In this document: piece by piece, positions 38,274 through 43,167 of the stretch
Layout of the letters: each line of letters begins with the position of its first letter
Numbering within the stretch: position 1 is the stretch's first letter
NCBI RefSeq assembly: GCF_029541745.1
Contig: NZ_CP089746.1
Coordinates: 4,349,559 to 4,413,558, forward strand
DNA: 64,000 nucleotides
Origin: Streptomyces sp. LX-29
GTDB taxonomy: Bacteria > Actinomycetota > Actinomycetes > Streptomycetales > Streptomycetaceae
Reading direction: 5' to 3'
The notes under the pieces: generated by a model
Database searches by the model: none
What the model saw: only the letters and a program-made list of their open reading frames with translations
What the model was told of the DNA's origin: nothing
Program-made: the position numbers and the translations under genes

Positions 38274-38786
38274 CGGACCGCAGGGTCGGCGGCGGGGCCC
38301 ATCAGGCGGGGCCCATCGCGCAGGGACCGTCGGGCAGGGCCCATCCGGCGGGGCCGGCCGCCGGGCCCGTTGGGCGCGGCTGGTTCGCCGTCGGCCGCCC
38401 GGCGGGGCCGCGCACGCAGACGACCCGCGAGCTCAGTCCCTCGCACCGGCTGGTGCGAGGGGCCGGCCGGACGTACCGGCGAGCCCGCGGGTCGGGTGAC
38501 TGCTGGGAATTGGACCGGCGACTACCGCCGGTACCGCGCAAGAGCGCGACGACGGGCCGTCAGCCCGCAGCCACCTCACGCGTCCGGTTGCCATACATCT
38601 GCCGAACCACCTCCCTTCTCGTGTACCTCACACACTAGGAACCCCTCCGCGCCCGCACAACCGAATTTCTGGCGGGCAACGATTTCGGCGAACCCCGTGT
38701 GGCACGCGTCACGTTCGAGTTCAATAGCCCGACGTGCAGCAGATGCAGCCGCAGCCGCGGACCGCGCGTACAGCAGGGGGTGTCGG
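38274..38786. other. 513-base intergenic region with GGGCCCATC repeats and a perfect hairpin
   Basis: No gene is supported. Near 38293-38345 a GGGCCCATC motif recurs three times at 20-40-base spacing. At 38440-38459 is a perfect eight-base stem CTCGCACC / GGTGCGAG with a four-base loop. The final 140 bases are AT-richer and contain TTCGAGTTCAATAGCC (about 38714-38729), a promoter-like patch closely resembling the one before the hydrolase at 43448-43460. Confidence 0.5.
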
Positions 38787-41447: not shown

Positions 41448-42140
41448 ATGTCCGGACTCATCGACACGACGGAGATGTATCTCCGCACCATCCTCGAGCT
41501 GGAAGAGGAGGGTGTGGTCCCCATGCGGGCCCGCATCGCGGAGCGGCTCGACCAGAGTGGTCCGACGGTCAGCCAGACGGTGGCGCGGATGGAGCGCGAC
41601 GGGCTGGTCCAAGTGGCCGGCGACCGCCATCTGGAGCTGACGGACGAGGGCCGCCGGCTGGCCACGCGCGTGATGCGCAAGCACCGGCTGGCCGAGTGCC
41701 TGCTGGTCGACGTCATCGGCCTGGAGTGGGAGCAGGTGCACGCCGAGGCGTGCCGTTGGGAGCACGTGATGAGCGAGGCGGTGGAGCGCCGCGTGCTGGA
41801 GCTGCTGCGCCACCCCACCGAGTCGCCGTACGGCAACCCGATCCCCGGCCTGGAGGAGCTCGGCGAGAAGGCCGAGGCCGACCCGTTCCTGGACGAGTCC
41901 ATGGTCAGCCTCACCGAGCTGGACCCGGGCACCGAGGGCAAGACCGTGGTCGTGCGCCGCATCGGCGAGCCGATCCAGATGGACGCCCAGCTGATGTACA
42001 CGCTGCGGCGCGCCGGCATCCAGCCCGGCTCGGTCGTCAGCGTGACGGAGTCCGCGGGCGGCGTGCTCGTGGGCAGCAGCGGCGAGTCGGCCGAGCTGGA
42101 GCCCGAGATCGCCTCCCACGTCTTCGTGGCCAAGCGCTAG
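41448..42140 (+). CDS. dmdR1: DtxR/IdeR-family iron-dependent repressor (DmdR1-like)
   Basis: The 230-residue regulator starts at ATG 41448 behind GAGGGG. It has an N-terminal winged helix (DTTEMYLRTILELEEEGVVP, RLDQSGPTVSQTVARMERDG), a dimerisation domain and a C-terminal SH3-like domain. The known DtxR metal ligands are all present at matching positions: Met10, His79, Glu83, His98, Cys102, Glu105 and His106, with Glu174 and Gln177 corresponding to DtxR Glu170 and Gln173. It should bind Fe2+ and repress siderophore and iron-uptake genes. Neighbourhood and sequence resemble S. coelicolor dmdR1. A long antisense frame covers the gene (see findings). Confidence 0.92.
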   Translation: MSGLIDTTEMYLRTILELEEEGVVPMRARIAERLDQSGPTVSQTVARMERDGLVQVAGDRHLELTDEGRRLATRVMRKHRLAECLLVDVIGLEWEQVHAEACRWEHVMSEAVERRVLELLRHPTESPYGNPIPGLEELGEKAEADPFLDESMVSLTELDPGTEGKTVVVRRIGEPIQMDAQLMYTLRRAGIQPGSVVSVTESAGGVLVGSSGESAELEPEIASHVFVAKR

Positions 42141-42167
42141 CCGCCGTCTCACGGGTGCGGCTCTTAC

Positions 42168-42240
42168 GGCCGCACGCTGCGGGGCGGCATTCTGCTCTAC
42201 CGTGCGCGGGTTTCGTTTCGCGCCTGCGGCGCACTGCGGC
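42168..42240 (+). repeat. Left 73-bp inverted repeat of the 42.2-kb element
   Basis: Aligns without gaps to the reverse complement of 42652-42724 with 59 of 73 positions identical. Shared blocks include GCGGGGCGGCATTC and TTCGCGCCTGCGGCGCAC versus CTCGCGCCTACGGCGCAC. The two arms bound a 411-base interior. Confidence 0.8.
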
Positions 42241-42327
42241 CAGCGGTGGAGCGGAGGGGCGGGCCTGGCGCCGTGGCCGGCTGCTGCCGGGTGACCATCC
42301 CCGGCCGCGCCGGGCGCGGCGTATCCG

Positions 42328-42378
42328 TTCGCAGGATCGCTTGATGTAGCGCAAGTACTCCGGCAACCGATTCTGCGA
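42328..42378 (+). repeat. 51-bp structured direct repeat, copy 1
   Basis: Shares 46 of 51 bases with copy 2 (90 bases downstream). Its ends are self-complementary: TCGCAGGATCG pairs with CGATTCTGCGA over 11 positions with one G-T wobble. Inside is a smaller CTTG...CAAG stem. One end-stem change in copy 2 keeps pairing through a wobble. Confidence 0.8.
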
Positions 42379-42417
42379 CGCACACTGCATCCGCGTGCCG
42401 GGCGCAGGAGGTGTCTC

Positions 42418-42468
42418 TTCGCAGGATTGCTTGATGCGGAGCAAGTACTCCGACAACCGATTCTGCGA
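42418..42468 (+). repeat. 51-bp structured direct repeat, copy 2
   Basis: Second copy of the 51-base unit, with ends TCGCAGGATTG and CGATTCTGCGA and an inner TTGCT...AGCAA stem. It differs from copy 1 at five positions. Confidence 0.8.
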
Positions 42469-42651
42469 GGGGTATCCGCGCCCGCGCCGCGAGACACGGG
42501 CTGTACGGGTGACGTGGCCTGACTTACCGGCCGTATGAGAGGAACACGGGCCTGAGCCGCGGCGGCTGGTCGTTCGTCGGCCAACCGGTCACCGGTCACC
42601 GGGGCGTCGGACGGCGACGGCGCCGCGGCCGCCTCCCTCCTTCCCGTTGGT

Positions 42652-42724
42652 GCCGCTGTGCGCCGTAGGCGCGAGACGAGAGCCGCGGTCGGCCGGGCCG
42701 AATGCCGCCCCGCGGCGCGCAGCC
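42652..42724 (-). repeat. Right 73-bp inverted repeat of the 42.2-kb element
   Basis: Reverse-complement partner of 42168-42240 at 59 of 73 positions. In one reading direction both arms encode a similar peptide (AVRRRRET...GRAECRPA). The repeat may therefore descend from duplicated coding or from a mobile-element end. Confidence 0.8.
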
Positions 42725-43167
42725 GCACGATGGCAGCCGCACGACTTCGCGGCCGCACGACCTCGCAGCCGCGGGGCCCGCGGAGCGGGGGCGCAGCGAC
42801 GGGCAAGTTCACCCTATTCGGCCGAGTTTCCCCCGCGACCTGCGGCATCGGGGCGCCTACCGGGCGGAGTTGTCGGAAATCGAGCGGGCCGGGCCCGGGC
42901 GTGCCACTCTGTCGCTGACGCATATGCGTACGGACGCATAAGTGCGCGGACGCGCAGGGGGCGCGATGGGCCCATGGGGCGAGGCGGTGGGCGCGGCTGA
43001 CACGGCGGGCGGGTTGCGAGGGTTCGCCGTGGCCGCCGGTGTCGGCGGCGTGCCGGCCGGGCGCGGGTCCCGGGCGGTCGGGCGAGGACGCATACGTGGG
43101 CGACGCGCCGGGAGTGCGGCGCGGCGGCCACTGGACGGCGGCAGCGGCCACGGCGGGCCCGCATGGC

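What the first reader, a model, noticed from the sequence alone, without database searches (positions are those of the whole stretch)
42168..42724. 557-bp element with 73-bp inverted ends and two 51-bp structured repeats
Arms 42168-42240 and 42652-42724 align ungapped at 59 of 73 bases in inverted orientation. Inside, two 51-base direct repeats (42328, 42418; 46 of 51 identical) each have 11-base self-complementary ends TCGCAG(G)AT-G / CGATTCTGCGA. One change between copies preserves pairing by wobble. No protein gene is evident. The layout fits a non-autonomous mobile element, a structured RNA locus or a site-specific recombination region beside the iron regulator.
Basis: seen in the sequence. 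Interest (0 to 1): 0.7.

Follow-up and report, generated by a model that had tools for sequence, protein, structure and literature searches.

The report
Dispersed palindromic DNA family in Streptomyces
The stretch beside the iron-regulator gene is one copy of a family of non-coding, mirror-image DNA elements scattered between genes of one Streptomyces lineage, which mostly stay in place over species time but have occasionally been gained, lost or had their middle flipped.

Summary
Window 42139-42793 holds one of 8 arm-bearing copies of a non-coding family in an 8.23-Mb Streptomyces genome. The plan is constant: inverted arms of about 115 bp, each with a mini-palindrome usually headed CGTC, spacers, and a central palindromic core (here twice). 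Cores were found in 10 of 392 sampled Streptomyces genomes: this host, its near relative Streptomyces sp. SAJ15 and eight of the S. violaceusniger type. In that clade most named loci (72 of 98) share their site with another species, so the copies are old. They are not inert: three of the host's eight sites lack the element in SAJ15, arm number varies, and at 6 of 21 orthologous sites the core is inverted relative to its flanks, though never between genomes with flanks at least 97% identical. I found no gene inside, no target-site duplication, no autonomous partner, and no Rfam, plasmid or phage match. Best reading: an old, non-autonomous, BIME/MITE-like repeat, spread in a common ancestor and now mostly passively inherited, with occasional inversion by recombination between its arms. 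A functional RNA or protein-binding site is not excluded. New variant of a known kind.

The parts
42139..42793 (.). Segment present here and replaced by 406 unrelated bases in Streptomyces sp. SAJ15 (G058); contains the whole element; begins within the dmdR1 stop codon
   Evidence: Flanks match at 96% (left) and 90%, then 98% (right); homology stops at 42138 and resumes at 42794; no arm or core match in the SAJ15 locus
42173..42285 (+). Left arm (inverted-repeat unit; mini-palindrome CGTTTCGCGCCTGCGGCGCA at 42214-42233)
   Evidence: Family arm profile, 69 bits; anchor at 42214
42321..42384 (+).
   Evidence: Core profile 59.9 bits, covariance model R1 70 bits; the window's copies were among the sequences both were built from
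42411..42475 (+).
   Evidence: Core profile 67.5 bits, covariance model R1 81 bits, RNA fold z -5.3
42605..42721 (-). Right arm (inverted copy of the left arm; mini-palindrome at 42659-42678)
   Evidence: Family arm profile, 81 bits; anchor
41448..42140 (+). Neighbour: DmdR1-type iron-dependent repressor (not part of the element)
   Evidence: Pfam PF01325, PF02742
43435..44379 (+). Neighbour: alpha/beta hydrolase reading frame (not part of the element; start codon not settled)
   Evidence: Pfam PF00561

Best explanation
This is one copy of an old, lineage-restricted family of non-coding, non-autonomous interspersed elements. Each is a large interrupted palindrome: a palindromic core of about 51-90 nt between inverted arms of about 115 bp. 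Inferred: the family spread in a common ancestor of this host and the S. violaceusniger clade, by some activity acting in trans on the arms or core. Shown: most sites have since been inherited by descent, with occasional gain or loss, tandem gain or loss of arms, and inversion of the interior. Inferred: the inversion comes from recombination between the inverted arms of one copy. It works like a BIME/MITE-type repeat rather than a gene, a riboswitch or a fast switch.
For: Same plan in the intact copies: arm(+)-core-arm(-). 8 arm-bearing loci in the host; all 17 arm matches at up to 3 mismatches lie in those loci. Cores in 10 of 392 Streptomyces genomes and, in an even draw of 396 genomes of the phylum, only in the host. 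Host and SAJ15 group with the four violaceusniger-type genomes included in a SIS-dmdR1 tree (support 0.999, 15 genomes). 18, 19 or 21 orthologous sites depending on the test. In the four single-contig genomes no copy found lies within 1.3 Mb of an end. Presence/absence at the window site, L005 and L059. Arm number differs between orthologues. Both orientations at 6 of 21 sites, with spacers and core flipped together in the one case read in full. Arms of one element resemble each other more than re-paired arms: 0.691 against 0.661, 1 of 2000, 58 elements.
Against: No target-site duplication. No autonomous copy found: of 30 proteins beside elements 27 match other Pfam families and 3 none; beside 8 further arm loci the only transposase is an IS4-type gene at L321, about 0.7 kb outside a solitary arm and not between arms. 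At two of the three polymorphic host sites the relative carries other DNA (406 and 208 bp), not a clean empty site. Arms are better conserved than flanks at orthologous sites (0.838 against 0.744, 63 pairs), which could mean selection rather than passive decay.
Confidence: 0.58

Rival explanations
1. A protein-binding DNA site with a present function (nucleoid organisation, insulation or regulation): the nearly constant CTTGAT and TCAA half sites around GCAACTA/GCAAGTA are bound by a protein and the arms help loop the DNA.
For: The core loop is the best conserved part of 112 aligned cores. Arms are more conserved than flanks. Positions are kept over species time. No copy found near the chromosome ends in four single-contig genomes.
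Against: Much of the loop conservation was selected by my search pattern. 382 of 392 sampled Streptomyces genomes gave no match, and three of the host's eight sites lack the element in SAJ15. Core orientation shows no dependence on replichore in the violaceusniger-type genomes.
Confidence: 0.17
2. A structured RNA or terminator element at the ends of transcripts.
For: The window element folds with z -9.2. One core pair changes from G-C to U-A in two of ten copies. Tandem or convergent placement (52 of 63) outnumbers divergent (11 of 63).
Against: No Rfam match. The named helices pair in 73% of cells against 49% when slid by one column, but the covariation score exceeds shuffles only slightly (0.141 against 0.127) and helices 1 and 2 are unpaired in about a third of cells. 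The palindrome folds equally as DNA. No T-tailed terminator and no sigma-70-like promoter in 42100-42850.
Confidence: 0.13
3. An invertible switch: a recombinase acting in trans on the arms flips the interior of many dispersed copies, as Mpi does in Bacteroides fragilis (recalled).
For: Core in both orientations at 6 of 21 orthologous sites; orientation calls have a margin of at least 29.6 bits over 160 cores. The arms carry a conserved dyad.
Against: No flips in 24 pairs with flanks at 97% identity or more (0 of 16 at 99.5% or more, probably the same genome twice, and 0 of 8 at 97-99.5%), and 0 of 6 sites shared by host and SAJ15, one of them judged on one flank. Fast switching would give about half. 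No recombinase was sought genome-wide.
Confidence: 0.06
4. A chance pile-up of repeats in GC-rich intergenic DNA.
For: Several of the short repeat pairs are of that kind.
Against: 200 shuffles never approached the observed repeats. The same plan recurs in 71 elements with both arms.
Confidence: 0.01

Closest known systems
CGTC-tagged REP repeats and their inverted dimers (Di Nocera et al. 2013, PMC3733652; passages seen)
   Same: Intergenic palindromes headed by CGTC, often as inverted pairs, with no dedicated transposase known; the paper even reports dimers placed within longer palindromes.
   Different: Here the stem is 5 bp with a 3-nt loop (8-9 bp and 4-5 nt in the paper), the repeat unit is about 115 bp, a separate conserved core sits between the units, and copy number is about 8-15. 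The paper lists five phyla for CGTC repeats; Actinobacteria is not among them.
REP/BIME elements with RAYT transposases (PMC2817692; passages seen)
   Same: Non-coding composite elements of inverted palindromic units spread through one lineage.
   Different: No GTAG-type head, no rayt gene beside any copy examined, far fewer copies.
MITEs (general knowledge)
   Same: Short, non-coding, inverted ends, presence/absence between relatives.
   Different: No target-site duplication, no related autonomous element found, arms amplified in tandem, conserved palindromic centre.
Invertible DNA elements (invertons; general knowledge)
   Same: Segment between inverted repeats found in both orientations.
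   Different: Inversion seen only between diverged genomes, no recombinase known, arms long and diverged.

Membership tests
CGTC-REP | CGTC head directly before a palindrome | tested here: met
   115 of 142 arms of 71 elements have CGTC, 16 have CGTT; the arms were found with a pattern holding CGTC at up to 5 substitutions. Two bases (TC) lie between head and stem
CGTC-REP | Stem of 8-9 bp, loop of 4-5 nt | tested here: not met
   Stem GCGCC/GGCGC of 5 bp, loop of 3 nt (tally); definition from PMC3733652
CGTC-REP | Inverted dimers predominate | tested here: met
   71 elements with arms in inverted orientation around a core; solitary arms exist too. Whether the pairing is head-to-head in the paper's sense was not tested
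REP/BIME with RAYT | GTAG-type head | tested here: not met
   Arm sequences
REP/BIME with RAYT | rayt gene flanked by the repeats | tested here: inconclusive
   None among 30 proteins beside elements or 19 more beside 8 further arm loci; no genome-wide search for Y1 transposases was made
MITE of a DDE transposon | Terminal inverted repeats | tested here: met
MITE of a DDE transposon | Target-site duplication of fixed length | tested here: not met
   Words of 3, 4, 5, 6 and 8 bases matched in at most 7 of 70 elements at any of 140 common offsets; none at the L005 indel. Uncertain element ends could hide one
MITE of a DDE transposon | Autonomous relative with the same ends | tested here: not met
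   Host arms occur only in the element loci; extra arms of G360, G384 and G165 that were fetched (8 loci) enclose no transposase; an IS4-type gene lies outside one solitary arm. Not all carriers were examined
Inverton | Segment between inverted repeats found in both orientations | tested here: met
   6 of 21 sites; extent read in full for L213 only
Inverton | Switching within a strain or between near-identical genomes | tested here: not met
   0 of 24 pairs at 97% flank identity or more; no reads were available
Inverton | Cognate recombinase | not tested
Structured RNA family | Match to a curated RNA family | tested here: not met
   Whole window at gathering score (one match, elsewhere); four other loci with copies at E up to 1
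Structured RNA family | Covariation supporting a helix beyond controls | tested here: inconclusive
Structured RNA family | Transcript | not testable with these tools
   No RNA-seq

The most novel reading that the evidence does not exclude
The copies form one dispersed, position-conserved system of invertible cis-elements in these Streptomyces, recognised in trans by a lineage-specific protein that binds the core and recombines or bridges the arms, and tied at several sites to XRE-DUF397 regulator pairs.
Probability: 0.08. Interest if true: 0.75.

Novelty: new variant of a known kind. Interest (0 to 1): 0.42.

Why it matters
Dispersed palindromic repeat families are described above all in gamma- and alpha-proteobacteria; the three REP papers looked into here do not mention Streptomyces. 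This family has an unusual composite plan, can be traced to orthologous sites across ten named genomes of the S. violaceusniger clade, and shows gains or losses and inversions that can be read from alignments. That makes it a usable case for asking whether such repeats are selfish relics or cis-acting chromosome elements. It also marks stretches that should be annotated as repeats rather than as spurious reading frames.

Tried and rejected
Exact 50-base pattern in genome and viral collections: no match, records of the host's own genome possibly left out. Link between core orientation and replichore: the host's arm-bearing copies up to 4.39 Mb are all on the + strand, but the single-contig violaceusniger-type genomes are mixed, so it was dropped. 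Target-site duplication: none; the 9-base overlap at L005 in the first alignment is chance extension, since the junctions read share no duplicated flank. Autonomous element: 8 loci with extra arms in G165, G360 and G384 were fetched. L318 has arms around a core-less interior of about 780 bp without a predicted gene; the others are solitary or same-direction arms, two with weak cores. L321 has an IS4-type transposase gene about 0.7 kb outside its one clear arm, which I take as chance. Plasmid or phage origin: no match for a violaceusniger-type copy or for the window's copy. Coding: the long mechanical frames crossing the region are not used as genes; no predicted gene spans the middle of any of 71 elements. 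Literature: searches listed no paper that, by title and start of abstract, describes this repeat, and the arm sequence is in no held paper.

Weak points in my own tests. One search used stricter filters and scored 11 candidates a genome, so weak or single copies could be missed. In one search flanks include coding sequence, the identity of the core (0.728) is depressed by inverted members, and the separate score for the inner motif failed (0 pairs). Pairs of orthologous loci are not independent. One edge of the orientation graph was inconsistent. In one search I gave 96 of the 97 full cores and 16 further ones from host and SAJ15.

Full report
What is there. No RNA family matches the stretch, and 42160-42730 folds much better than its shuffles.

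It is a family. A search of the host's own genome (one contig of 8,228,343 bases) with the core, then with a fuller copy and with the arm sequence, gave 8 loci that carry arms. At up to 3 mismatches there are 17 arms, against 0 for the reversed pattern, and all 17 fall in these 8 loci. Two loci, the window's and one near hemE (L004), have two cores in tandem; L059 has a single arm and a core. Two further core-like matches have no arm: 47 bits at 4,608,283 and 29 bits at 4,347,539.

Anatomy. From outside in: an arm of about 115 bp with a mini-palindrome such as CGTCTCGCGCCTTCGGCGC, a spacer, the core, a spacer, the inverted arm. The head is CGTC in 115 and CGTT in 16 of 142 arms. Arms may be repeated in tandem, 134-149 bp apart, 286 in L003 (L057 two and two, its SAJ15 orthologue L118 three and one; L004 one and a remnant, its orthologue L120 three and one). 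In the S. violaceusniger type the core is longer and ends in GGGGTACCCC, with CTTGAT, GCAACTA and TCAA nearly constant; the host type has GCAAGTA. At one orthologous site five elements carry CGCGCGCTTCGCGCG in place of GCGCCTTCGGCGC in both arms: stem bases changed together, and both arms changed together.

Distribution. A DNA search found matches in 6 of 295 Streptomyces genomes. The covariance model R2 found cores in 10 of 392. In an even draw of 396 genomes of the phylum only the host matched. The 19 stretches from outside Streptomyces have no arm match and at best an 18.7-bit core match. Distinct core sites, leaving out second-strand matches at the same place: 15 in G360, 14 in G384, 8 in G165, 11 in G055, 15 in G096. 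A tree of the SIS-dmdR1 stretch groups host and SAJ15 with the four violaceusniger-type genomes included (0.999; 15 genomes, one with a partial sequence), so one origin in their common ancestor is enough.

Old and placed. Of 98 named loci with a core, 72 fall into 18 groups that share both flanks between species, and 26 stand alone, some because the contig ends nearby. With further genomes and duplicates merged there are 21 such sites. Of the host's 8 arm-bearing loci, 5 have an element at the orthologous place in SAJ15, as has the core-only locus L116; for L058 the left flank differs. In the four single-contig genomes no copy found lies within 1.3 Mb of an end. No predicted gene spans the middle of any of 71 elements; of the 63 placed between two genes 31 are tandem, 21 convergent and 11 divergent, orthologues not merged.

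Gained or lost. At the window's site SAJ15 has dmdR1 at 99% identity but 406 unrelated bases in place of 42139-42793, and none of 13 other genomes has the element there. At the argR site (L005) the host has about 440 bases more: the SAJ15 sequence is continuous and no flanking bases are duplicated. At L059, 270 bases here face 208 unrelated bases there. None of the three SAJ15 loci has an arm or core match. At dmdR1 and at argR the junction falls in the stop codon (TAG here against TGA, and TAA against TAG). Insertion and deletion cannot be told apart with this sample.

Flipped. The core is asymmetric in its loop, so its direction can be read (margin at least 29.6 bits over 160 cores). Of 216 pairs of orthologous loci with both flanks matched, after merging near-identical genomes, 36 have the core in the opposite direction; 6 of 21 sites show both directions, two of which belong to one wider group. 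By flank identity: 0 of 8 at 97-99.5%, 4 of 25 at 95-97%, 9 of 55 at 92-95%, 17 of 63 at 88-92%, 6 of 65 below; the 16 pairs at 99.5% or more, probably the same genomes twice, show none. In L213 against L191 and L268 the spacers turn with the core, so there the interior between the arms has inverted. Between host and SAJ15 0 of 6 shared sites are flipped. This is slow inversion, as recombination between inverted arms would give, not phase variation.

Structure and constraint. On 112 cores the named helices pair in 73% of cells against 49% when slid by one column, but the covariation score exceeds shuffles only slightly (0.141 against 0.127). A two-sided change in two of ten early copies is real but rare. 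No T-tailed terminator or sigma-70-like promoter was found in 42100-42850. At orthologous sites aligned columns are identical in 83.8% for arms, 77.0% for spacers, 74.4% for flanks and 72.8% for cores, the last lowered by inverted members (63 pairs). Arms of one element resemble each other more than re-paired arms (0.691 against 0.661; 1 of 2000; 58 elements). These fit recombination between arms as well as selection.

Neighbours. They are diverse: DmdR1 and a hydrolase, ArgR, a DUF3000 protein, a LuxR-type and an IclR-type regulator, CobU and CobT-type enzymes, a prolyl-tRNA-synthetase-like protein, a thiolase and others. Of 30 scanned beside elements 27 match families other than transposases or recombinases and 3 match none. 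Of 19 more beside further arm loci one is an IS4-type transposase (L321), outside a solitary arm. At 7 of 19 violaceusniger-type sites a DUF5753-type XRE regulator lies within 1 kb in at least one member (three of the seven supplied the queries), and a DUF397-like motif within 2 kb at 5 of 19. This was noticed afterwards and the genomic background was not measured. XRE-DUF397 pairs are described as regulators in Streptomyces (PMC10364602, PMC6262351; search listing and start of abstract).

Comparison. The nearest described kind is the CGTC-tagged REP and its inverted dimers (PMC3733652, passages): the head and the inverted pairing agree, stem and loop length do not, and the core is extra. RAYT-linked REPs (PMC2817692, passages) differ in the head. 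PMC12306157 (passages) does not mention Streptomyces. I therefore do not file it as a CGTC-REP, a RAYT-linked REP or a MITE, but say that it works like such non-autonomous repeats.

Verdict. A real, lineage-restricted repeat family with an uncommon composite plan and a readable history; ordinary in kind, new in detail.

Noticed in passing
window 38415-38624, - strand: Match to Rfam RF02471 (Ms_IGR-5, an actinobacterial sRNA), 82.9 bits, within mechanical reading frames of the region.
   Followed up: no
window 42719-42764: Three short tandem copies of GCAGCCGCACGA-like units at the outer edge of the right arm.
   Followed up: no
L101, L094, L115, L114, L095, L133, L193 and orthologues: DUF5753-type XRE regulators within 1 kb of the core at 7 of 19 violaceusniger-type sites, with DUF397-like motifs within 2 kb at 5 of 19; no DUF397-like motif in the window or in 12 host and SAJ15 loci.
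   Followed up: partly
L058 and L122: The left flank of this copy does not match between host and SAJ15, and the distance from L002 to L058 is about 94 kb shorter in SAJ15, as if a large rearrangement ended at the element.
   Followed up: no
window 42138-42142 and L005 near 1761: At two polymorphic sites the junction with the element-less genome lies within the stop codon of the neighbouring gene, just after GCGCT in both.
   Followed up: no
L318 2026-2826: An element in G360 whose core is replaced by unrelated sequence between two arms about 780 bp apart.
   Followed up: partly
L319, L126, L131: Arms repeated in the same direction hundreds of bases or more apart, with a weak core or none found.
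   Followed up: partly
L321 356-1453: IS4-type transposase gene about 0.7 kb outside a solitary arm in G165.
   Followed up: partly
L320 1089-1823 and L324 2534-3268: A SLATT_2 effector-domain protein beside a solitary arm at what looks like the same site in G165 and G384, next to a purD-like gene.
   Followed up: no
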